From positions 1 to 26,939 of IMG/VR virus record IMGVR_UViG_3300006805_000129: a stretch of DNA of 26,939 bases, one strand, 5' to 3'. The position numbers were made by a program, and so were the translations under genes. A model generated the notes under the pieces. The model ran no database searches. It was not told the DNA's origin and saw only the letters and a program-made list of their open reading frames with translations. Numbering within the stretch: position 1 is the stretch's first letter; each line of letters opens with the position of its first letter. Shown in pieces: positions 4,728 through 26,889 of this stretch. The stretch comes from a virus.

Positions 4728-4734
4728 CTAGAGC
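4721..4734. repeat. 14-bp palindrome holding both stop codons
   Basis: GCTCTAGCTAGAGC is a perfect palindrome. It contains the plus-strand TAG (4725-4727) of the HTH gene and the minus-strand TAG (4730-4728) of the methyltransferase. The two genes meet end to end with no base between them. There is no T-tract, so it is not a standard terminator. Confidence 0.7.
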
Positions 4735-5501
4735 AGGGCGGCCTGAAGCGGGTTGGCTCGTTGGACGCCGGTCTCGACGTTGGCGATCCTGCCCTCGGCT
4801 ACCTCGGCATAGTGCGCCGACATCTCGACGCCGATGAAGTGACGGCCCTCAGACAGTGCGGCAACTCCCGTGGAGCCTGACCCCATAAAGGGGTCCAAGA
4901 TGACGCCGCCAGGTGGGCAAATCTTGACGAGCTCCCGCATGACGTCTAGCGGCTTCTGCGTTATGTGCTCCCGCTCGCGCGGTGGACTGGCTTGGAAGAA
5001 GCCCGGCAGGCAGGGGTCTTCGTAGTCGATGCCCATGCTGCCGGCGCTACCCCATACGACGTACTCGCACTGGGCAGCGAACCGGCCCGCCTGTGGGCGG
5101 TATTGAGTCTTAGCCCACGGCACAACTCCACGCCATACAAAGCCGCCCGCTTGGAAAGCATCGGTGGTCGCAGGGAGCTGGCGCCAGTCAGTAAAGACAC
5201 ACCCCACGCCGCCCGGCTTGAGAACCCGCAGGGCCTCTCCGATCCACAGGGCAGACCAGTAGGCGTAGGCCCGCTGGTCACGATTGTCGCCTGTGAAGTC
5301 CTCAAGGGCTTGACTGCCGCTGTCGCTGTTGACGTACTTGGCCTTGGTATTGCCCATGCGGTCGCCGCGGACCATGCCGCCCGAGCTGTACGGCGGGTCA
5401 GTGATCAGGCAGTCGACAGATTGGCTGGGCAGCTCTTTGAGGACAGCGAGGCTGTCGCCACGGTAAAGGGTGGCGACGTTGGTCATGTAGTAAGGCTCCA
5501 C
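4728..5501 (-). CDS. DNA methyltransferase, beta class (probable N6-adenine)
   Basis: S-adenosylmethionine-dependent DNA methyltransferase of 257 aa. Catalytic motif IV DPPY is at residues 35-38, near the N-terminus. The AdoMet-binding motif FMGSGSTG is at 205-212, near the C-terminus, preceded by TQKP (181-184). This permuted order defines the beta class, and DPPY favours adenine N6 methylation although cytosine N4 is possible. The region between (about 100-180) should hold the target-recognition part. No restriction endonuclease is adjacent, so it is an orphan, probably protecting phage DNA from host restriction or marking it. I chose GTG at 5501 because GGGGAG lies upstream; ATG at 5486 is a fair alternative. 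A terminator sits just upstream, so expression must come from readthrough or a promoter I cannot identify. Confidence 0.92.
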   Translation of the reverse strand: MEPYYMTNVATLYRGDSLAVLKELPSQSVDCLITDPPYSSGGMVRGDRMGNTKAKYVNSDSGSQALEDFTGDNRDQRAYAYWSALWIGEALRVLKPGGVGCVFTDWRQLPATTDAFQAGGFVWRGVVPWAKTQYRPQAGRFAAQCEYVVWGSAGSMGIDYEDPCLPGFFQASPPREREHITQKPLDVMRELVKICPPGGVILDPFMGSGSTGVAALSEGRHFIGVEMSAHYAEVAEGRIANVETGVQRANPLQAALL

Positions 5502-7538: not shown

Positions 7539-9542
7539 TCACCGGTACTGGGCCCAAGAGGCCAAAACGGTGTAGGTGGGCGTCGCAGCCGTCTTGATGA
7601 TCGTCAGCGTGAAGGCGTCAATGCCTGCCGTCTGGTTAGCCTGCGACGCCGTAGGCGGTGCCGAATTGTTCAGCCATTTCGGCGTCACCGCAGTACCGTC
7701 CACCTGAATCGTCGTCGGGTAGTAAGCCGTCGTGCCGTTGTTGATGACCCAGCCCACCGTGTAGGCATCCTCCACAGCCAACAGGCTCGACAAGGTAGTG
7801 GACGAATCCCCGCGGAAGTTGACCGTGTGATTCGCTGTCGCGTTGGTCGTGTAATGCCAGACAGCGGCAGTCTTGACGTCCACGTTCACGGTGCCCGTAG
7901 CCGCAGAGGCGACCACGTTGAACCGCTCAATCGGAGCCAGTTGGATGATCGTGGACAGCAGATTCGTCCACGACGCATTAGACCCGTCCGTCGTCAGCAA
8001 CTTGTTAGCGTTGCCCGTCTGAGTCGGCAGGCTGACAGGGGCGGCAGCCCACTTCACCCCCAAGGTCTGAGCAGAGTCAGCGGTCAGGATGTGCCCGTCT
8101 GTCCCCACGCCCAGGCGTGCCGGGGCTGAGGTGTCCCTGACGATCAGGTCGCCCTTGGTCGTGACGAGCGCGTTACCGATCGCCCCAATATCGGCCGCCG
8201 TGGGCAGGACGTGGACGTGGTCACTCCTGGCGACGCTGGCCGTCGCCGTGCCCGGTGAGGCAGCCGTCCCCAGGGCAGCGGGGTTCGTGGAGGCCAGGAC
8301 GACGTTCAGCGTCCTCGACGCCGACAGGTCGCCACCCCCGGCGAGGCCGGTGCCGGCCGTGATCGCCGTGGCCGTGCCGACGGCACCGATGTCGGCCGGT
8401 GTTGGCCGGGCGTGGACGTGGTCGCCCCGAGACAATTCCACCGATGTCCCGGCTGCGCCCGCGGCGCCGAGCGCCTGTGGCGTCGCGTCGGAGAAGTCGG
8501 CGACCAGGGTGCCACCGGACGCGGTGCCGAGCCCCGCCCCGTACATGAGGCTGAAGGTGTTGGACGTGTAGTCGATGGGGTCGTTAGCCGACAGTCCCGC
8601 TAGGTCGCCTTGGGGTCCGGTGACGAGGACGAAGTCAAAGGTGCCGGCGGCTGAGTTGCCGACGTTGGTGACCGCTGCGGTGCCGCCGTAAGGGACGGAG
8701 GTGACCGAGCCAACCGCGATGGTGGCGGCTGATCCTGTCGCACCCTGCGGCCCCGTGGCTCCCTGCTGACCTGTCACGAGGATGAAGTCAAGGACGGCGG
8801 CCGACGAGCTGCCCGAGTTGGTGACGGTGCCGGGTCCGGGGTAGGCGACGGCGCCGACTGTCCCGACGGTCACGCTTGCGGCTGACCCTGCCGCGCCCTG
8901 CGGCCCAGTCGCGCCAGTGGCTCCCTGCTGTCCGGTGACGAGCGTGAAGTTGAGGACGGCGGCGGAGCTGCTGCCAGAGTTCGTGACCGTGCCCGGACCT
9001 GGGTAGGCCGTGGCGCCGATGGTGCCGACGGTGACGGTGGCGGCTGACCCGGCTGGCCCTGTGGGGATGCCAAGGTTGAGGGTCTGCGAGGGGGCGAGGC
9101 CGGTGATGGTGGCGGTCGCGGCCGAACCTGCCGCGAGGGTCGTGACGGTGCCGATGCTCAACGAAGAAGCGAGCGAATAATACTCGGGCCCGGCTGCGGC
9201 GACAGGCGCTAGGTCGGCGAGGTAGACGGTGCCACCCGAGGCGACAGTGCCAGGGATCGAAATGTTGTACGACTGCGACACCCCGTCAATGACTTCGGTG
9301 ACCGTGTAGATGAACGGGTTGGGGGACAGGTCCGCGTCGTCTGTGATGGGCAGGGTGACGGAGAAGTTGCCCGCCGTCCCGAGGGTCTTGGAGACCGCCG
9401 AGTTGGGGATGGCGATATTGGCGCCCGAGTTGAGCAGCCACGCCGAGGGCGTAAAGGTGATGGTGCCCGTCGAGGGGTTGCCTTCAGGAGTGTTGAAGGT
9501 GCCGAGGACGACCACGGTCGTCGTGTTGGCAGGCAGCGGCAT
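7539..9542 (-). CDS. Tail fibre with collagen-like repeats
   Basis: Predicted 667-aa fibre. Residues 1-115 form a beta-rich head (TFNTPEGNPSTGTITFTP and following). From about 125 come repeats of 'SIGTVTTL..GSAATATITG' type joined by collagen-like Gly-x-Y runs (GPAGSAA, GATGATGPQGAAG, GATGPQGATG). Two copies of a segment containing DHVH and PT-x-ADIGA follow (SRGDHVHARPTPADIGAVG near 371-389 and ARSDHVHVLPTAADIGAIG near 438-456). The end (530-667) is a beta-rich C-terminal domain. Collagen-like triplets suggest a trimeric shaft; DHVH segments recur in phage fibres. The ATG overlaps the stop of the upstream fibre (TAATG) with GGAGG seven bases away. It probably carries or supports the three small tip proteins downstream. 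Confidence 0.85.
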   Translation of the reverse strand: MPLPANTTTVVVLGTFNTPEGNPSTGTITFTPSAWLLNSGANIAIPNSAVSKTLGTAGNFSVTLPITDDADLSPNPFIYTVTEVIDGVSQSYNISIPGTVASGGTVYLADLAPVAAAGPEYYSLASSLSIGTVTTLAAGSAATATITGLAPSQTLNLGIPTGPAGSAATVTVGTIGATAYPGPGTVTNSGSSSAAVLNFTLVTGQQGATGATGPQGAAGSAASVTVGTVGAVAYPGPGTVTNSGSSSAAVLDFILVTGQQGATGPQGATGSAATIAVGSVTSVPYGGTAAVTNVGNSAAGTFDFVLVTGPQGDLAGLSANDPIDYTSNTFSLMYGAGLGTASGGTLVADFSDATPQALGAAGAAGTSVELSRGDHVHARPTPADIGAVGTATAITAGTGLAGGGDLSASRTLNVVLASTNPAALGTAASPGTATASVARSDHVHVLPTAADIGAIGNALVTTKGDLIVRDTSAPARLGVGTDGHILTADSAQTLGVKWAAAPVSLPTQTGNANKLLTTDGSNASWTNLLSTIIQLAPIERFNVVASAATGTVNVDVKTAAVWHYTTNATANHTVNFRGDSSTTLSSLLAVEDAYTVGWVINNGTTAYYPTTIQVDGTAVTPKWLNNSAPPTASQANQTAGIDAFTLTIIKTAATPTYTVLASWAQYR
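8607..9050 (-). repeat. Three tandem repeats of about 51-54 codons in the fibre gene
   Basis: Residues 165-312 of the fibre contain three units, each starting GSAA-[TS]-[VI]-[TA]-VG and ending LVTG plus a collagen-like run. The first two are nearly identical over PGPGTVTNSGSSSAAVL; the third is diverged. The DNA repeats likewise, so recombination could change shaft length. Confidence 0.8.
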
Positions 9543-10960
9543 TAGTTACCCTCCAAGGCTTCAATGCGGGCGGTGAGGTTGTCGACCTTGTCGGCGAGCG
9601 ACTGGACGGCGGTGAGCAGCATGGGGACGAACACCGAGTAGCGAACAGAGAGAGTCCCGTCGTCATCTTCGGCGACCATGCTGGGGAAGATTGACTGGAT
9701 TTGCTGCGCAGTGACGCCGAGAAGTTTCTGGTCTGAACCTTGCCAGTGATAGGTGACGACCTCGACCTGGCGCAAGTCGTCTAGGTAGTTGCGGGCTGGC
9801 GCGATGTTCTCTTTGAGCCGGGCGTCGGAATATCCGGCGTAGGAGTTGGTGCGGGACAGGACGTCGCCGTCTGCCTCAACTTGGAACTTGGCTTGATTTG
9901 TGGTGGTGACGTTGGAGTTGAGGCGAAGCATGACGTCGCCCGCCGTGGCCGTTGTGCGGTAGCCCTGAAAGACAATGTTGTCCGCTTCAGTAATGGCTCG
10001 GTCTGCCGTCAGGTTTCCGGCGGTGTCTATGTTCCCAGTCGCGTCAATGGCACCGCCGACGGTCAGTTTGCCACCGACGTAGGCGGTGCCCGAGTTGCTG
10101 ATGCTGGTGTTTGTGATGATCCCGCCCGTAACAAATGACAGGTCGCCTTGGATTTGTGTGTCGGTACCGATAACGAGGCGAGATGACGGCGACAGCACTA
10201 GGTCGCCTAGGTTGCCGTAGAGGCTGTGAAGGGCGTTGTTGCCGCTGTAGATGTTCACATAGCCAACGGGACCGGAGTCGTTCATGGTAACGCGGGCTCC
10301 GCTTGTGCCGGTGCGAAACTCTGCACCGCTGATCGTGCCTCCGCTGACGAGTCCGCCTGAAATCGTGCCCCCGGACAGGTAGGCGGCGTTGATTGACCAG
10401 CCGGTGATGGTGCCCGCGACGATGCTGTTGGCGGTGATGGCGTTGGCTGCGATGTCGGGGGCGTTGATCTGACCGGGCTGCGCGCTGGCAGCCGAGCCTG
10501 CTGCGGTGACGTTGCCTGCGGGGTCGGCGCCGCGTAGGCGGAAGTAATAGGTGGTGCCGCGTGACAGGCCGACAACCGACAGCCCGCCAGGCCGCGCCAG
10601 GCGGCCCTTGAGGGTGGCGGTGCCCACCGTGAACGTCGGCCCCGACGTGTCCATGTGGACCTCGACGTATGACGTGTCCGAGGGCCACAGGTCACCGGCT
10701 GAATTGAGGCCGTTCCAGACCACGTTGATGCCCTGCACGGAACTAATCAGGGTGGGGGTTGACGGGGCGATGAACGCGCCGGGTGGGGGCAGGACGGGGG
10801 CGGGTTCGGTGCCGCCGCCAGTGCCAGGAGTGGGGGTGGGGGCGACGCCGCTGGTCCCGTCGCCGCTGGACTTCACCCCGGCGCCGCCGATGATTGACGT
10901 GAGCCTGGCAAGCTTGGATTCCCACGGCTGCGGAGGTCGGCGCATTTCTCCGCTAGGCAT
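9542..10960 (-). CDS. Tail fibre/spike with C-terminal S74 intramolecular chaperone
   Basis: Predicted 472-aa virion protein. After a Pro/Gly linker (38-62), residues 65-160 look like a fibronectin type III domain (PTLISSVQGINVVWNG, later TYYFRLRGADPAGN). A repetitive beta-helical stalk (165-340) follows, with GGTISGG-type repeats. The end, about 375-472, is an S74 peptidase/intramolecular chaperone domain: SDARLKENI (Ser378, Lys383), LGVTAQQ, FPSMV, and a closing coiled coil with LADKVDNLTARIEALE. Such domains trimerise the fibre and then cut themselves off N-terminal to the Ser using the Ser/Lys pair. Release of the last ~95 residues is therefore predicted. The ATG overlaps the upstream stop by eight bases with GGAGG nine bases away. 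Confidence 0.9.
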   Translation of the reverse strand: MPSGEMRRPPQPWESKLARLTSIIGGAGVKSSGDGTSGVAPTPTPGTGGGTEPAPVLPPPGAFIAPSTPTLISSVQGINVVWNGLNSAGDLWPSDTSYVEVHMDTSGPTFTVGTATLKGRLARPGGLSVVGLSRGTTYYFRLRGADPAGNVTAAGSAASAQPGQINAPDIAANAITANSIVAGTITGWSINAAYLSGGTISGGLVSGGTISGAEFRTGTSGARVTMNDSGPVGYVNIYSGNNALHSLYGNLGDLVLSPSSRLVIGTDTQIQGDLSFVTGGIITNTSISNSGTAYVGGKLTVGGAIDATGNIDTAGNLTADRAITEADNIVFQGYRTTATAGDVMLRLNSNVTTTNQAKFQVEADGDVLSRTNSYAGYSDARLKENIAPARNYLDDLRQVEVVTYHWQGSDQKLLGVTAQQIQSIFPSMVAEDDDGTLSVRYSVFVPMLLTAVQSLADKVDNLTARIEALEGN

Positions 10961-17672: not shown

Positions 17673-18599
17673 TCAGCCTCCGATTTCGTAGTGCTTGCGC
17701 ATCCAGTCGACGGTGAGCGGCAAGCCTTGGGCCAGCCGGGTGCGCGGGTTGTGGTGCAAGAGAGACTTGGCCTTGGAGATATCCGGCCGCTTGCTGGTGA
17801 CGTTGTGCTTGTCTAGGGGAAGCCGGGTGACCAGGGACGGGTGGGCGCCGGTGATGTCAACGAGCATGTTGGCCATGTCCTCAACGCTGACGTATTCGTC
17901 GCCGCCGATATTGACGGTCTCGCCAGCCACGAAATTGTCAGCAGCATTTCCGAGGGTGCCGATGAAGTCGCCCTGGTAGAGAAAGACTCGGTGATAGTTC
18001 TCGTACACCGTGATCGGCTTACCCGTCAGCAGGCGGTAAGCGAACAGGCAGACGACCGAGCGATAGTCGTGATATCGCTCACCGGGGCCGTAGGCGTTGA
18101 AGAACCGCAGCGTCATGGTCTTCGTGCCATAACGATCAGCGAAATTCCTGACCTGCTCCTCGTTGACCCGCTTGCTAATCGCGTAGTCGTTGGTCAGGCG
18201 CGGCTGGGCGTTGTCCAGCAGATACCGCTCGTCAATCGCCTCAGCATCAGCCTCGCCGTACACCTCCGAGGAGGAGGCGAAAACGTGCCGGAAACCGCGC
18301 TCACGCTGGAGCTCAAGCACGTTGCGGGTGCCGATGGCGTTGGTCTTCCAAACGGCTTCGTAAAATTCTTCCCCGTTGATTCTTCCGAACTCAGCGGCTA
18401 GGTGATAGACGAGGTCAAAGTCGCCGATGCGGTCGAAGGCGGCCCGCAGCTGCCGGAAGTCGGCGACGTCGGCGCGGATGGTCTGCCGCTGCCCGGTGTG
18501 CTGAAGTTCAATGCCCCAGACTTCGTGGCCACGTTCGCGCAGCTCAGCGACCAGGGGGGCGCCCAGGGTGCCGGCCGATCCGGTCACGACGATCTTCAT
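17673..18599 (-). CDS. NAD-dependent epimerase/dehydratase (extended SDR)
   Basis: Predicted 308-aa nucleotide-sugar enzyme of the extended short-chain dehydrogenase family, cytoplasmic. The Rossmann signature TGSAGTLG gives Gly7, Gly10 and Gly13. LVYHLAAE is at 63-70, the active-site region FASSSEVYG at 107-115, and the catalytic pair YAISK at Tyr139/Lys143. RFFNAYGPGE (165-174) and VNIGG (229-233) are standard in sugar epimerases such as UDP-glucose/GDP-mannose epimerases or dehydratases. The exact sugar cannot be told from sequence. It is last of a three-gene cassette with two glycosyltransferases, with an ATGA overlap to the gene before it and GAGGAG upstream. Likely job: make the donor sugar for virion or host-surface glycosylation. 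Confidence 0.9.
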   Translation of the reverse strand: MKIVVTGSAGTLGAPLVAELRERGHEVWGIELQHTGQRQTIRADVADFRQLRAAFDRIGDFDLVYHLAAEFGRINGEEFYEAVWKTNAIGTRNVLELQRERGFRHVFASSSEVYGEADAEAIDERYLLDNAQPRLTNDYAISKRVNEEQVRNFADRYGTKTMTLRFFNAYGPGERYHDYRSVVCLFAYRLLTGKPITVYENYHRVFLYQGDFIGTLGNAADNFVAGETVNIGGDEYVSVEDMANMLVDITGAHPSLVTRLPLDKHNVTSKRPDISKAKSLLHHNPRTRLAQGLPLTVDWMRKHYEIGG

Positions 18600-19360
18600 G
18601 CTGTCTCCTCAACGATCTGCCAGAACTTCTTGGGTTGCTCTGACAAGACCTGCGCGGGGTCGCCGGGCTCTAGCCGCCCGACGAGGGAGTTGGTGACGAT
18701 CTCGCAACCAGCGAGGGTGGCTTCGATGACGACCAGGGGGCAGGCGTCGCGTTCTTTGGGCAAGTGAACGAAATACTGGGCTCGGGCCATGTGGTCGAGG
18801 ACGACGTCGTGGTCGGCGTTCTCAAGCTCGACCAGGGCAACGCCGTGACGGGCGGCCCATATGCGGGCTTGGACTTTGCCTTTGGCTGGGTGGCGCCTAC
18901 CAGCGAACAGGGCGAAGGGCTCCTTGGTCGCGGGCTGCACGCACTCGGGCGGCACGGGGGAGTGGACGAAGTCGTCGGCTCGGCCGGTCCATTCGGCTTC
19001 CCAAGCCATGTGCAAACGAGACATGGTCAGGAAGCGCGATGCCTGCCGGAACAGGTTGGCCTTGGCTGGGGTGCGGTGCTGGGCGTGCTGGACCCACACG
19101 ATGGGCCTGCACGCCGCTAGGAAATTCATAGCGGCTTCGGAAAGTTTGTCGGTGCCTCCGACCACTACCCGGTCAAATGAGCCGTCTACGGCGCTCTGGA
19201 AATTGTCGGGTTCGATGTAGTGAACCTCAACGTCAGGCGGTGCGGCCTGGATCATGTAGTCGGTATTCCGCTCCGCGCCGCCGGCATATTTGCCGGGCAG
19301 CAGGGCGCCGTGCCTTTCCTCCACCCGTGGAATGTGGTGAGTGACCCAGGCGACCCTCAT
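18596..19360 (-). CDS. Glycosyltransferase, GT4-like
   Basis: Predicted 254-aa protein. The N-terminal half starts with strand RVAWVTHHIP and a Gly-rich loop GKYAGGAERN. The C-terminal half has FALFAGRRHPAKG (149-161) and then ERDACPLVVIEATLAGCEIV (203-222). There Asp205-x7-Glu213 matches the E-x7-E donor-binding motif of GT4 enzymes with Asp in place of the first Glu. It is shorter than the usual 350-400 aa, so it may be a compact or reduced version. The ATG lies in an ATGA overlap with the preceding glycosyltransferase and has no ribosome binding site of its own, implying coupled translation. Acceptor and donor are unknown. Confidence 0.82.
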   Translation of the reverse strand: MRVAWVTHHIPRVEERHGALLPGKYAGGAERNTDYMIQAAPPDVEVHYIEPDNFQSAVDGSFDRVVVGGTDKLSEAAMNFLAACRPIVWVQHAQHRTPAKANLFRQASRFLTMSRLHMAWEAEWTGRADDFVHSPVPPECVQPATKEPFALFAGRRHPAKGKVQARIWAARHGVALVELENADHDVVLDHMARAQYFVHLPKERDACPLVVIEATLAGCEIVTNSLVGRLEPGDPAQVLSEQPKKFWQIVEETA

Positions 19361-20622
19361 GGCGCGAGCAGCACGTCCAGGGCGGGCCGCCAGTATTCGT
19401 CGAATACGCGGTCGGCGTCGTACTGCGCGGCAAAGTCAATGGCCTTTTGCGATCGGCCTCGGCCTCGCGCGTAGGCAGCCTCAAGGGAGTCCACGATCGA
19501 CGGGACCAGGGGGTTGAAGAACCAGGCGCCCTGCGGTGAGTCCCAGGCAGGCTGCACGTCCACGAGCCAGCCGTCGCCGCACAGTTCGGCTTGGGCGGTG
19601 GCGTTGGACACGACGACCGGGGTGCCCGTTGCCAAGCTTTCGATAGCGGGTATGCCGAAGCCCTCGCCGCGACTGGGCTGCAACAGGACGTCGCTGGCCG
19701 TGTAAATCGCCGCGAGCGCCTCCTTGGGCACGCCCAAGCGGTACGGGTAGGCGTCCACGAACTTGACCCGCTCCTGTGGGACACCCGTCGCCGTCAGTAG
19801 TGCGCGCAAGTCAAGACCCGTCATGGCAGGGCTGGGCTCGGTGTGCAGGTAGAGCCAGACGTCGTCGTGGTTCTGCATGACCATCGCGGCGGCCAGGAAG
19901 GACTCGGCGAAGGACTTGCGGTCGATGCCGCCCTTGTTGGCGCTGACCATGGTGATGAGGTAGGCATCCTCGGGGATGCCCATCCACGTCCGCGCCGGGA
20001 CCGAGCCCTCGGTGCCGACGATCTCAGCCGTCGGCTTGAACACCTTTGTGTCAATCGCGTGCGGAACGTAAAGCGTTTCGATGTCCAGGCGCTCAATGGC
20101 GTCGCGCCCGAACTTGCTCATGGCGATGGGCGTGACGTTGGGCTTGACCAGCCACTCGGCCACCGCAGGCGGCACCGGGAAATGGTCAATCGGCACCCAG
20201 GAGGCGATGCGGTCAATGACGTCCCAGCCGGCGCCCCGGAACACCCAGCAGTCGAACAGGGTAATCATGAGCGGCTGGTGCCCGAGTTCCTGCCCGAAGT
20301 GCATGAGGTGAGCAGGCATGACGTCGTTTGAGTAGGCGTCAAAGCCGCGGGGATAAACCCGCACGCCTTCCCACTCCATGATGGAGGCTTCGAGGCCGTA
20401 GTTGGACGCTACGGCGACGGGGTGCCCGGCTTGCTTGAGCCGCCGGACGACTTGCGCGGTTTGCTCGCCGTAGCCTGTCGAGGCCCACGGGGCGTTGGAC
20501 CCCCAGACGATTCCTCGCGCAGCAGTCCCAGGCGAAGCAGCTGCTCCGCTTCTGGCGGCGGCACGTCGAGCGGGGTTCCCAGAACGTGAATGAGCCTTGG
20601 CAGTTTTCGTGGCATTGGCCAC
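19357..20622 (-). CDS. Glycosyltransferase family 4
   Basis: Predicted 421-aa GT-B fold enzyme. After a basic, Ala-rich N-terminal tail (1-36) the acceptor domain begins at GIVWGSNAPWASTGYG. The donor domain includes ITMVSANKGGIDRK and ends with QPSRGEGFGIPAIESLATGT, where Glu320-x7-Glu328 is the retaining GT4 E-x7-E motif. I chose the GTG at 20622, six bases after AAGGAG; the frame stays open further upstream into the capsid gene but those starts lack a ribosome binding site. It is the first cistron of the sugar cassette, behind a long hairpin region that follows the capsid gene. The basic tail may contact the virion or nucleic acid; this is a guess. Confidence 0.9.
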   Translation of the reverse strand: MANATKTAKAHSRSGNPARRAAARSGAAASPGTAARGIVWGSNAPWASTGYGEQTAQVVRRLKQAGHPVAVASNYGLEASIMEWEGVRVYPRGFDAYSNDVMPAHLMHFGQELGHQPLMITLFDCWVFRGAGWDVIDRIASWVPIDHFPVPPAVAEWLVKPNVTPIAMSKFGRDAIERLDIETLYVPHAIDTKVFKPTAEIVGTEGSVPARTWMGIPEDAYLITMVSANKGGIDRKSFAESFLAAAMVMQNHDDVWLYLHTEPSPAMTGLDLRALLTATGVPQERVKFVDAYPYRLGVPKEALAAIYTASDVLLQPSRGEGFGIPAIESLATGTPVVVSNATAQAELCGDGWLVDVQPAWDSPQGAWFFNPLVPSIVDSLEAAYARGRGRSQKAIDFAAQYDADRVFDEYWRPALDVLLAP

Positions 20623-20632
20623 CCTTATCTCC

Positions 20633-20686
20633 TTTGCGCAGGGTGTGGACGGCCCCGGCCCCCTGCGCAAAGCCGGGACCGTCCAC
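20633..20686 (-). promoter_or_regulatory. Mutually exclusive hairpins between capsid and glycosyltransferase genes
   Basis: On minus-strand RNA, bases 20686-20672 pair with 20659-20645 in a 15-bp stem with one G-U. The loop and the segment just after it are also perfect 11-bp complements: TTTGCGCAGGG (20671-20661) with CCCTGCGCAAA (20643-20633). The second helix cannot coexist fully with the first because the linkers are 0-1 nt. Its 3' arm ends in the AAA of AAAGGAG, the glycosyltransferase ribosome binding site. No T-tract follows. Confidence 0.7.
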
Positions 20687-20701
20687 GATTTGGTGCCTTG
20701 G

Positions 20702-21907
20702 TTACGACGCGCCACCCACGAAGTGCTTGATGTGGCTGGTCTGCGGCAGGTTGCCATCGACGCGAATCTGGAAACGGAGAGTGACCTGACCCGTGTTGAA
20801 GGCGAAGTCATCGCTGCGAGCCACGTCGATCCCGCCGACCTGGCGGACGTAGTACGACGGGAAGTGCCCGGCGATGACGGACTTGTTGGCGGTGCCGGTT
20901 GACGCCATCGCGGGGTTCTCAATGAGCGGAACGCCCAGGACGGTATCAGGTGTCTGCGCCTGAATAGTCGGCAAGAACACATAGTCGCCGCCCGACGTCT
21001 TCAGCTTGCGCATCGCACCAATGCTCGCGCCGTTAGCCATCACGCCGAAACCGGGCAGCCGACGAGCGGCCCCGTCCAGCGAGTAGACCAACGAAATGAG
21101 GTCATCGGCAGTGAAGGCGCCAGCGACACCCGTGCCGCCCGTGCCGCCAGCCGCCGAAGCGGTAACGATGCCGTTCGGCTGAACGGTGCCCGTGCCCGTG
21201 GTGAGCACGGTGTTCACGGCGTAGCCGATCGCGTTGCCAGCCTGCTGACCGAGGAACCCGATGACGTCGATATTGCTGTCGGCAAGGAACTCCTGCGAGA
21301 CCTGCACGATGAAGGCGTACTTGTACGCCTTGAGCGTGGTCTTGGCGAACGCCGGGTCCGACTCGTCAATCGTGGCAGCCTCGGCCTCAAGGCCAGCGGT
21401 CGACCAAGACGACAGAGAAGGCAGCACGAGGTCTTCGCCGCTGGCCGTGTTGAGCACGGTCACGACGGACGGGTCCAGCATGGGGCCGACGAGGCGTGCC
21501 TGGTCGATGACCGCGTTTGAGAACGAGGTCGGGACCGGGGCGTTGCTCGTGGTCTTGGCCAGGTCGCGCTTCTCGAACTGGAACGAGTAGGCGCGGCGCT
21601 CGCCGGTCAGCAGCTCGCGCAGAATGTCGGCGTCGGACTTCTCCGCAGCCATGCGCGACTCAACCGGGCGGGCAACATTCTCAAGGCCGGACATGGCCTC
21701 GGCGATCTCGCGCTCACGCTTCTCAGCGTCAACGAGAGTGGTGATGAGGTCGCGCTTGGCGTCGAGCTCCGCGAACGTGCGGTCGACGAACTCGCGCTCC
21801 TCAGCGGACAGGTCACGGCCCTCGGCGGCGACCTCGTCCATCTTGGCCTTCGCTGCATGGTAGGCCGACTGGCGGTCCTCCACGAGCTTCTGAAGGTACT
21901 GAGACAA
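20702..21907 (-). CDS. Major capsid protein, HK97 fold
   Basis: Predicted 401-aa capsid subunit. Residues 1-85 are a charged coiled-coil delta domain that guides prohead assembly and should be removed by the protease. The mature HK97-fold part likely begins near residue 90-120. Typical marks are QVSQEFLADSNIDVIGFLGQ, a Gly-rich Ala/Thr loop near 245-255, LISLVYSLDGAARRL, GVPLIENPAM, and the P-domain end VTLRFQIRVDGN. The TTG start has GGAAAGGGG upstream. The gene is flanked on both sides by RNA hairpins, unlike its tightly overlapping neighbours. The glycosylation cassette that follows makes this surface protein a candidate acceptor. Confidence 0.92.
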   Translation of the reverse strand: MSQYLQKLVEDRQSAYHAAKAKMDEVAAEGRDLSAEEREFVDRTFAELDAKRDLITTLVDAEKREREIAEAMSGLENVARPVESRMAAEKSDADILRELLTGERRAYSFQFEKRDLAKTTSNAPVPTSFSNAVIDQARLVGPMLDPSVVTVLNTASGEDLVLPSLSSWSTAGLEAEAATIDESDPAFAKTTLKAYKYAFIVQVSQEFLADSNIDVIGFLGQQAGNAIGYAVNTVLTTGTGTVQPNGIVTASAAGGTGGTGVAGAFTADDLISLVYSLDGAARRLPGFGVMANGASIGAMRKLKTSGGDYVFLPTIQAQTPDTVLGVPLIENPAMASTGTANKSVIAGHFPSYYVRQVGGIDVARSDDFAFNTGQVTLRFQIRVDGNLPQTSHIKHFVGGAS

Positions 21908-24562: not shown

Positions 24563-26083
24563 CTAGACTGAGAAGAAAGCGGGCACGGCCGCCTCGGGCT
24601 CGGCCTCGCGGGCGTGCGTCGCCCGGTCAAAGGCGATGATCGCGGCTACCGCCGCGTCAATCTTGCGCGGCGAACCCCGATGCTCCTTGACCACCCGAGG
24701 GCCCCGAGCGTCAACCTTGATGACGCAGTTGTCCAAATGTCGGGCGAGAACGGGATGATGGTCGTGCGAGACCGCGCCGCTAGTAACCGCGTCATAAAAC
24801 TTGGCCGTCGAGGGAACCATTCGAGCCGGGCTGGACGACGGATACTCCACGACCGGAACACCGGCCTCGGCCAAAGCCTCCATGGACCGCGCCCAACGGT
24901 AGGGGTCACAAGCAACCTCGACCACGTTGAACTCGCCGCACGTCCGCAGGATCGTCGCCTCAACCTCACCGATATCCACCCGCCAGTCATCGCGGTCGGT
25001 GGGTTGCTTCTCCCAAATATCGACCAGCCAAATGCGCGGGTGTTCCTCAACCGTGACGCCGACAATGGCGGTGGTGTCGTTGGAGAACGAGCCGTCAAAG
25101 CCCAGCACGACCGGGACGTCGCGGCCCACCGAATCCAGCTGCGGCAGCGCATCCCATTCGCCGTGAGGCAACCACGCCTGCTGGGCCGAGACCCACTGAT
25201 TCAGGCGCTTGGTGCGGAACTCGTTTTCGGGAGTCCGCTTGACGGCGGACTCAAAGTCCTCGGGGTCCTGCAAGTCAGCGAAGCCAGGGTTGGCCTGCTG
25301 CCAAACCTTCGGCTCCTTGTGATCGGAGGACTCCGGTGCGCCCCACCAAGCCATGAAAAACGATGGGTCGTCAACCTCGCCGGCAGCCACCCGCTTGCCG
25401 TACTGCCAGAGCGAGTAGCAAGTCGAGTCCTGGCCCGTGGAGTCAGCCTTCACGCCAGCCGTCGATAGGGCGACGATCATGGAGTCCAAGCGCGCGGCCT
25501 GGGCCAGCGACATGACATCCCACAGTTCGCGGTTTGGGGCGGCGTGCAACTCGTCGTAAAAGACGGCCGTGGGGGACAGGCCCTCCTTAGTGAACGCCTC
25601 GGAGGAAAGCACCCGATACACCGAGCCAGTTGAGGGAATTTCAATGGCGTCCCGGTAGAGCTTGGCCAACTCCATGAGTTCGGGCGACTGCTCGACCATG
25701 GCCTTAGCGGACCCGAAAACGATGCGGGCCTGCTCCCGGTCAGCGGCACAGGAATAAACCTCGCCGCCACGCGGACCCAGATAGAGCGAATACAGGGCCA
25801 TGCCCGAACCCAGCGCGGACTTCCCCGACTTACGCGGCAGCATCACCAGCGACGTTCGATGCCTCAGTCGGCCATCGGGCCGTCGGGCGTAAACGGCTTC
25901 TAGGAGTTTCTTCTGCCAGGGCCGCAGCAGCAGCGGCTCACCAGCCTTGCCCCCGATGGAGTCCTTGACCTGGGGGCACAGTTGCTCAATGAACTCAACG
26001 ACGTCTTTCCCTGACCCGCGTTTGATATCAGCGGGTGGGACGGGTGTCAGTAATGCAGGGGGCCAGCCCTTAATTTTGCCCAT
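24563..26083 (-). CDS. terL: Terminase large subunit
   Basis: Predicted 506-aa DNA-packaging motor. Numbering from the ATG at 26083, the ATPase has Walker A PRKSGKS (83-89) and Walker B VFYDELH (174-180, with Asp177 and Glu178); the coupling-motif LSTAG near 206 is also present. The C-terminal nuclease has metal-binding Asp330 in VLGFDGS, Asp393 in VEVACDP, and Asp476 in KIDAAVAAI. I chose the ATG at 26083 because GGAG lies nine bases upstream; a TTG at 26098 would give 511 aa but has no ribosome binding site. It follows a plus-strand gene rather than the small terminase directly. Confidence 0.94.
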   Translation of the reverse strand: MGKIKGWPPALLTPVPPADIKRGSGKDVVEFIEQLCPQVKDSIGGKAGEPLLLRPWQKKLLEAVYARRPDGRLRHRTSLVMLPRKSGKSALGSGMALYSLYLGPRGGEVYSCAADREQARIVFGSAKAMVEQSPELMELAKLYRDAIEIPSTGSVYRVLSSEAFTKEGLSPTAVFYDELHAAPNRELWDVMSLAQAARLDSMIVALSTAGVKADSTGQDSTCYSLWQYGKRVAAGEVDDPSFFMAWWGAPESSDHKEPKVWQQANPGFADLQDPEDFESAVKRTPENEFRTKRLNQWVSAQQAWLPHGEWDALPQLDSVGRDVPVVLGFDGSFSNDTTAIVGVTVEEHPRIWLVDIWEKQPTDRDDWRVDIGEVEATILRTCGEFNVVEVACDPYRWARSMEALAEAGVPVVEYPSSSPARMVPSTAKFYDAVTSGAVSHDHHPVLARHLDNCVIKVDARGPRVVKEHRGSPRKIDAAVAAIIAFDRATHAREAEPEAAVPAFFSV

Positions 26084-26128
26084 GCGCAGGGGCTCCAAGG
26101 TAAAGTCGGCAGCGAATGAGGGGGGACA

Positions 26129-26470
26129 ATGTCAGTCTGGAACAAATACGGAACCATGACCGAAGGCCGAGTCACCGCAAATCTGCGCATGACCGGACCG
26201 GACATCTACTACGACGCCTGCCGATGGCTCTACAACCAAGAGCCCGTAGGCAATAAGGAATACCGACCCGCACAAGCGGCCATCGTCAACGGCGTGCCCA
26301 TGGTCGTTATTGACGGCGCAGCCTGCGGATACCTACCTACCGACTGGACACAGTTCGTCGGAGCGATAAAGCAGCGCGGACCGCTGCATGGCACCGGAAC
26401 ACTTCTTTGGCGTCAGCAGCCAAACGGCCAATGGGAGTTCGCCGTCTTCATTGACCTGAAGGACGCCTAG
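26129..26470 (+). CDS. Plus-strand gene between the terminase genes, HIRAN-like?
   Basis: Predicted 113-aa protein on the strand opposite to all surrounding late genes. GAGGGGGG stands three bases upstream of the ATG. The pattern AQAAIVNGVPMVVIDGAACG (48-67), then YLPTDWTQFVGAI, and the end LLWRQQPNGQWEFAVFIDL resembles the small HIRAN-like domain of actinobacterial proteins (strand, 'VVxDGxxxGYL', helix, final 'V-x-IDL'), which in larger proteins binds DNA ends. That match is from memory and weak. The stop TAG and the small terminase stop share CTAG at 26467-26470. It is 45 nt from the large terminase start, so the two are divergent. Possibly a moron gene expressed on its own. Confidence 0.62.
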   Translation: MSVWNKYGTMTEGRVTANLRMTGPDIYYDACRWLYNQEPVGNKEYRPAQAAIVNGVPMVVIDGAACGYLPTDWTQFVGAIKQRGPLHGTGTLLWRQQPNGQWEFAVFIDLKDA

Positions 26471-26889
26471 CGCTTATCCGCCTTCGCCCTCATCCGGTCA
26501 ATGGTCGAGGCCGCCTTCACCTCAGCCAGCCCAAGCCGGGCACGAGCCGTCGGATTGAAACCCAGCGCCGTCAGCCAGTCCGCGATCTCACGGTTCAACT
26601 CGCGCAACTGCTTACGGGCCTCAGTTGACGACTCAGCCACCGGGACCAGGCGCGCCCGCTCCTCAAGCGACTCCCGCAACATGGACAACTGGACGCCGTC
26701 AGTCTGAGCGAACCACGCCGACCCGGCCGCCATGATCTCGGCAAACAGGTCGGCCGGCGGACGCTCATGCGGCGCGGAGTCAATGGCAGGCACCGCAGCA
26801 AGAGGCCCTCGATTGTGACGCGATGCGTCAAACGTGCCCGTGCGCTTGTGCTGCTCAATCGGCTTCGGCGGTCGGCCGCGAGGGGCCAC
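26467..26889 (-). CDS. terS: Terminase small subunit
   Basis: Predicted 140-aa DNA-recognition subunit of the packaging motor. The N-terminus GRPPKPIEQHKRTGTFDASR is the usual start of actinophage P27-like small terminases. A helical middle (LFAEIMAAGSAWFAQTDGVQ, then LSMLRESLEERARLV) follows, and the end, LTALGFNPTARARLGLAEVK, is the family's normal C-terminal motif. GTG start with GGAGG seven bases upstream. The gene is separated from the large terminase by a plus-strand gene. Confidence 0.9.
   Translation of the reverse strand: MAPRGRPPKPIEQHKRTGTFDASRHNRGPLAAVPAIDSAPHERPPADLFAEIMAAGSAWFAQTDGVQLSMLRESLEERARLVPVAESSTEARKQLRELNREIADWLTALGFNPTARARLGLAEVKAASTIDRMRAKADKR

What the first reader, a model, noticed from the sequence alone, without database searches (positions are those of the whole stretch)
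26129..26470. Opposite-strand gene wedged between small and large terminase
Seen: a gene with a strong Gly-rich ribosome binding site runs against the late operon and shares its CTAG stop with the small terminase. It forces the large terminase to be read across an antisense gene. Known: terminase pairs are usually adjacent on one strand. Inference: a moron expressed in the prophage, with a possible HIRAN-like DNA-end-binding fold that would be notable next to packaging or defence functions.
Basis: partly seen in the sequence, partly recalled or inferred. Interest (0 to 1): 0.6.

Follow-up and report, generated by a model that had tools for sequence, protein, structure and literature searches.

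The report
Antisense moron between phage terminase genes
An aquatic actinobacterial phage carries a small, selectively maintained accessory gene, probably with a HIRAN-type fold, wedged backwards between its two DNA-packaging genes, in the same kind of slot where a Pseudomonas phage keeps a known defence gene (Tab); it is a new variant of a known arrangement, not a new kind of system.

Summary
ORF 26129-26470(+), 113 aa, lies antisense between terS and terL and shares its CTAG stop with terS. It is a real gene: homologues (35-57% identity) sit at the same junction and strand in nine other viral contigs, with intact frame and purifying selection (dN/dS about 0.1-0.35 in close pairs). It is an accessory cassette: most relatives have an empty junction, and gains or losses recur on the TerL tree. 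Cassettes share a 4-nt stop overlap with terS (12 of 13) and a leader with a TANNNT box 24-28 nt before the ATG. Three relatives carry a canonical HIRAN protein (Pfam E=1e-8) in the same slot, strand and leader; others carry a sense-strand HNH gene. The window protein itself fails the Pfam HIRAN test and seems to lack the NPxD loop, but its confident AlphaFold model matches HIRAN structures best (weak Z), and its profile aligns to HIRAN above 300 of 300 decoys. The arrangement matches Tab, the prophage defence gene of P. aeruginosa phage JBD26, an unrelated protein with an antidote gene absent here. Best reading: a moron expressed from its own promoter in lysogens, probably for defence. Expression and function are inferred. 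New variant of a known kind.

The parts
26129..26470 (+). Antisense accessory gene (113 aa), HIRAN-like fold predicted
   Evidence: homologues; selection; model
26118..26125 (+). G-rich Shine-Dalgarno-like stretch (GAGGGGGG), 3 nt before the ATG
   Evidence: G-run conserved in all 13 occupied loci
26101..26106 (+). Candidate -10 box TAAAGT (TANNNT; TAGGGT or TAGGCT in relatives), 28 nt before the ATG
   Evidence: no sigma-70 consensus promoter found by the scan
26084..26128 (.). 45-nt divergent leader between the terL ATG and the ORF ATG; also holds the terL RBS (GGAG, minus strand, 26093-26096)
26467..26470 (.). CTAG shared by both stop codons; 4-nt stop overlap in 12 of 13 occupied loci
26467..26889 (-). 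Small terminase (terS)
24563..26098 (-). Large terminase (terL); likely start ATG at 26083

Best explanation
A moron cassette. A small gene with its own promoter-like leader and RBS sits flush, antisense, between the terS stop and the terL RBS of a probably temperate siphovirus of an aquatic actinobacterium. It encodes a small beta-barrel protein, most likely a divergent HIRAN-fold protein. Proposed working (inferred): the late operon is silent in the lysogen, the cassette is transcribed from its own promoter, and the protein protects the lysogen from other phages, as Tab does from the same position in JBD26, probably through a nucleic-acid or protein target. On induction, late transcription runs through the cassette in antisense and would shut it down. 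Shown: real gene, site, recurrent presence/absence, shared leader, allelic replacement by canonical HIRAN. Inferred: promoter activity, expression in lysogens, defence function.
For: Homologues at the same junction and strand, none elsewhere in the 19 relative records searched. Most junctions are empty: of 171 oriented loci with both genes, duplicates included, 143 are empty, 12 carry this family, 3 canonical HIRAN and 5 HNH; the TerL tree needs at least 7 changes for this family. dN/dS about 0.1-0.35 in close pairs. TANNNT box 24-28 nt before the ATG in 13 of 13 and 4-nt stop overlap in 12 of 13. Canonical HIRAN gene in the same slot and leader in L057, L063 and L089. Model pLDDT 90; the five best chains by Z are HIRAN domains, 3k2y being recognised as HIRAN by sequence. 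Profile score 27.3 against a decoy maximum of 23.5 in 300 shuffles. Integrase in the window and in two relatives of 33-35 kb. ORF G+C 0.582 against 0.640 for the window. Precedent: Tab (PMC10884400). In a pneumococcal temperate phage a HIRAN gene lies between repressor and integrase.
Against: No transcript or protein data. The consensus promoter scan found nothing, and the TANNNT box lies in a leader inherited together with the terL start. No PADLOC, PHROGs, NCBIfam or Pfam family hit for the window protein. No repressor seen in the 27-kb record, which is incomplete; the nearest named phage, phiPsal1, was described as lytic. No antidote gene as in the Tab system.
Confidence: 0.55

Rival explanations
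1. Early counter-defence gene: transcribed from its own promoter right after DNA entry, it binds or masks phage DNA ends or inhibits a host nuclease or restriction system; its effect on lysogens is secondary.
For: Own leader and RBS; HIRAN relatives bind DNA ends (literature summarised in PMC8262856); patchy distribution also fits counter-defence.
Against: The NPxD end-binding loop seems absent in this subfamily; the closest architectural precedent is a lysogen defence gene.
Confidence: 0.25
2. Packaging regulator: the protein acts on cohesive ends or on the terminase next to which it is encoded.
For: Position between terS and terL; contig ends mark a cos-like site 50 bp upstream of terS; HIRAN proteins bind DNA ends.
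Against: Most close relatives have the terminase pair without it; antisense to the late operon, so not co-expressed with terminase; slot also taken by unrelated HNH genes.
Confidence: 0.08
3. On the fold only (compatible with any of the functions above): it is a generic small OB-like or SmpB-like barrel unrelated to HIRAN, and the canonical HIRAN gene reached the slot independently.
For: Z values of 4-6 are modest; SmpB chains score 2.7-3.3 in the same list; Foldseek finds nothing significant; no Pfam HIRAN hit for the window protein.
Against: The five best chains are all HIRAN; profile score above all 300 decoys; shared leader with the canonical HIRAN cassette.
Confidence: 0.3
4. Spurious antisense ORF, no gene.
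For: No database family; short; antisense.
Against: Conserved frame, length and site across 35-57% identical homologues and purifying selection.
Confidence: 0.01

Closest known systems
Tab / anti-Tab of Pseudomonas aeruginosa phage JBD26 (PMC10884400)
   Same: Small gene antisense between terS and terL, starting about 30 bp from the terL start; published own promoter; present in only some close relatives; called a moron.
   Different: No sequence similarity; Tab is 83 aa and looks helical by its sequence (not modelled); Tab has a sense-strand antidote gene after terS, for which there is no room here; Tab blocks tail assembly, target here unknown.
HIRAN domain (PF08797; HLTF, Rad5, bacterial lp_0118, phage HIRAN proteins)
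   Same: Order of predicted strands and helices, conserved Tyr before the first helix, GYLP segment, Trp and RGP after it; best structural matches; canonical HIRAN in the same slot in L057, L063, L089.
   Different: No Pfam hit for the window protein; NPxD loop not recognisable; only weak structural Z.
Free-standing HNH endonucleases in the terS/terL gap (L104, L108, L111)
   Same: Same insertion site in related phages.
   Different: Sense strand, nuclease motifs, different leader.

Membership tests
HIRAN (PF08797) | Pfam profile match above the curated cut-off | tested here: not met
   Window protein: no hit; best homologue L105 E=0.063, 13.6 bits against 24.7.
HIRAN (PF08797) | HEPDNPHD / NPxD loop | tested here: not met
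   Invariant in the phage HIRAN set; not recognisable in A1. By element order the loop is reduced; no superposition was available.
HIRAN (PF08797) | HIRAN fold | tested here: inconclusive
   pLDDT 90 model; best five chains are HIRAN, Z 3.8-5.7 over 84-90 residues; Foldseek not significant.
HIRAN (PF08797) | Profile-profile similarity | tested here: inconclusive
   Score 27.3, probability 41%, 0 of 300 shuffles as high, reversed 8.7; a first, smaller profile gave probability 4.5%.
HIRAN (PF08797) | Binding of 3' DNA ends | not testable with these tools
   Needs a binding assay.
Tab | Antisense gene between terS and terL | tested here: met
Tab | Sequence homology to Tab | tested here: not met
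   BLASTP E=0.59, hhalign probability 0.1.
Tab | Antidote gene directly after terS | tested here: not met
   Stops of terS and ORF overlap by 4 nt.
Tab | Own promoter active in the lysogen; blocks tail assembly | not testable with these tools
   Only a conserved TANNNT box seen.
Moron | Extra gene present in some and absent from other close relatives | tested here: met
Moron | Independent transcription signals | tested here: inconclusive
   Conserved leader and box; consensus scan negative.
Moron | Temperate phage, expressed in lysogen | tested here: inconclusive
   Integrase present; expression not testable.

The most novel reading that the evidence does not exclude
The terS/terL gap is a recurrent slot for antisense prophage defence genes in unrelated phages, and in this clade the antisense orientation itself takes the place of an antidote: late transcription through the cassette silences it during the phage's own lytic cycle.
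Probability: 0.2. Interest if true: 0.75.

Novelty: new variant of a known kind. Interest (0 to 1): 0.5.

Why it matters
It gives a second, unrelated example of an antisense accessory gene at the terminase junction, in aquatic actinophages whose defence genes are hardly known. It suggests that this junction is a place to look for prophage defence genes, links HIRAN-fold proteins to it, and offers a test of whether antisense late transcription can replace an antidote.

Tried and rejected
Direct protein search for relatives in viral and genome contigs and phage records found none, because the homologues are too divergent for exact peptide patterns; they came to light through terS and terL. Single-sequence AlphaFold was poor (pLDDT 47); nine sequences raised it to 90. 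Foldseek against PDB and BFVD gave no significant match; LOV domains topped the PDB list with TM about 0.2 and were dismissed. PDB sequence search with A1 gave nothing. Homology with Tab was rejected. A sense-strand antidote gene was looked for: terS and ORF stops overlap, so there is no room. PADLOC gave nothing for the window protein and weak hits (E=0.002) to candidate system PDC-M03B for the canonical HIRAN. No Rfam or tRNA match in the window. HTH_3 search for a repressor in the record gave nothing.

Full report
Observation. The ORF at 26129-26470(+) is present as described: 113 codons, ATG start, G-rich stretch GAGGGGGG before it, stop TAG inside CTAG 26467-26470, which also holds the terS stop on the other strand. 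Its neighbours are terL (24563-26098, minus) and terS (26467-26889, minus), by Pfam and PHROGs. The late operon runs on the minus strand: portal, protease, major head protein, connector, tail genes. The window is a whole IMG/VR virus record of 26939 bases, probably a fragment.

Is it a gene? Direct searches found no relative. Relatives found through terL and terS show homologues in nine other contigs (eight distinct proteins; L088 and L092 encode the same one) in the same gap and on the same antisense strand, 35-57% identical to the window protein, 109-111 aa against 113. A profile of the family finds no further member elsewhere in the fetched loci or in 19 whole relative records. Nei-Gojobori counts give dN/dS of 0.09-0.18 among the closest pairs and 0.20-0.34 between the window and its six nearest homologues; L092 and L088 differ at 15% of synonymous sites and at no amino acid. 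Distant pairs are near saturation and their ratios mean little.

What kind of element? In most relatives terS and terL are almost contiguous. Of 171 oriented loci with both genes (some contigs counted twice) 143 are empty, 12 carry this family, 3 carry a 144-aa protein that Pfam recognises as HIRAN (E=1.1e-8), 5 carry a sense-strand HNH gene (L214 was assigned to HNH by eye) and 8 have other spacings. On a TerL tree this family needs at least 7 gains or losses and all labels together 13, fewer than shuffled labels; recombination of terL would weaken this, but the patchiness stands. The empty junction reads terS stop, GGAGCC, terL start; the occupied one has the cassette between the stop and GGAGCC, the terL RBS. 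The stop overlap is 4 nt in 12 of 13 occupied loci and 14 nt in L107.

Leader. Between the terL start and the ORF start, all 13 occupied loci, including the three canonical HIRAN ones, share a leader with a G-run and a TANNNT hexamer 24-28 nt before the ATG: TAGGGT in most, TAGGCT in L002 and L107, TAAAGT in the window. This fits an actinobacterial -10 element (established knowledge), but a sigma-70 consensus scan found no promoter, and common descent explains part of the conservation. Promoter activity is inferred.

Fold. AlphaFold with the nine-row alignment gives pLDDT 90, pTM 0.83, against 47 without it. Among 996 PDB chains re-aligned, the five best are 3k2y (Z 5.7), Rad5 (4.2) and three HLTF HIRAN structures (3.8-4.0), over 84-90 residues. 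A profile of phage HIRAN proteins recognises 3k2y (E=2.5e-4) and HLTF (E=1e-6) by sequence, so these are HIRAN. These Z values are modest, and Foldseek itself reports nothing significant, though BFVD entries named HIRAN are among its few high-probability rows. A profile comparison with twelve phage HIRAN sequences scores 27.3, probability 41%, against at most 23.5 in 300 column shuffles and 8.7 reversed; an earlier, smaller profile gave only 4.5%. The window protein has no Pfam HIRAN hit, and NPxD, invariant in the phage HIRAN set, is not recognisable; by the order of predicted elements the loop is shortened, which I could not check by superposition. Loss of DNA-contact motifs is reported for actinobacterial HipN HIRAN domains (PMC8262856). 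I therefore call it HIRAN-like and do not file it as a HIRAN member.

How it most likely works. The closest published case is Tab of P. aeruginosa phage JBD26: 83 aa, antisense between terS and terL, own promoter, expressed from the prophage, blocking tail assembly of invading phages, with an antidote gene on the sense strand just after terS (PMC10884400; positions checked in JN811560). Tab and the window protein are unrelated in sequence. The window phage has a tyrosine integrase, as do two relatives of 33-35 kb, so it is probably temperate, although phiPsal1, the nearest named phage, was called lytic and no repressor was seen in this incomplete record. HIRAN genes also lie in lysogeny modules: in Streptococcus phage 23782 one sits between repressor and integrase. 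Hence the leading model, marked as inference: a prophage-expressed moron, probably defensive, switched off by antisense late transcription in the lytic cycle. Rivals are early counter-defence and, less likely, a role in packaging.

Host. No host is given by the record. The assignment to an aquatic actinobacterium is an inference from the nearest named TerL (Pontimonas phage phiPsal1, 54.8% identity), the G+C content of 64% and the TANNNT-type leader.

Novelty. The arrangement is known from Tab; the protein family, the host group and the replacement by canonical HIRAN in the same slot are new as far as the searches here go. I rate it a new variant of a known kind.

Noticed in passing
window 26939 (right end): The record ends 50 bases upstream of terS, as do more than a dozen related contigs at the equivalent base, while permuted contigs read ACCCGCCCCGTA|TGCATAC across it: a likely cos end.
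   Followed up: partly
window 17673-20982 (-): NAD-dependent epimerase, an unassigned 254-aa protein and a group 1 glycosyltransferase lie between the major head protein and the head-tail connector, which suggests virion glycosylation.
   Followed up: no
window 4728-5501 (-): N6/N4 DNA methyltransferase gene (E=3.6e-31).
   Followed up: no
L104, L108, L111 at the terS/terL junction: Sense-strand HNH endonuclease genes occupy the same junction in other relatives; L214 probably too, judged only by its sequence end.
   Followed up: partly
window 9542-10960 (-): Tail fibre-like protein whose C-terminal part matches many tail fibre families.
   Followed up: no
L235 2881-3330 (Nostoc phage Nsp-JY10): A lone HIRAN gene of similar build to the 144-aa L057 protein lies next to an XRE-type regulator.
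   Followed up: no
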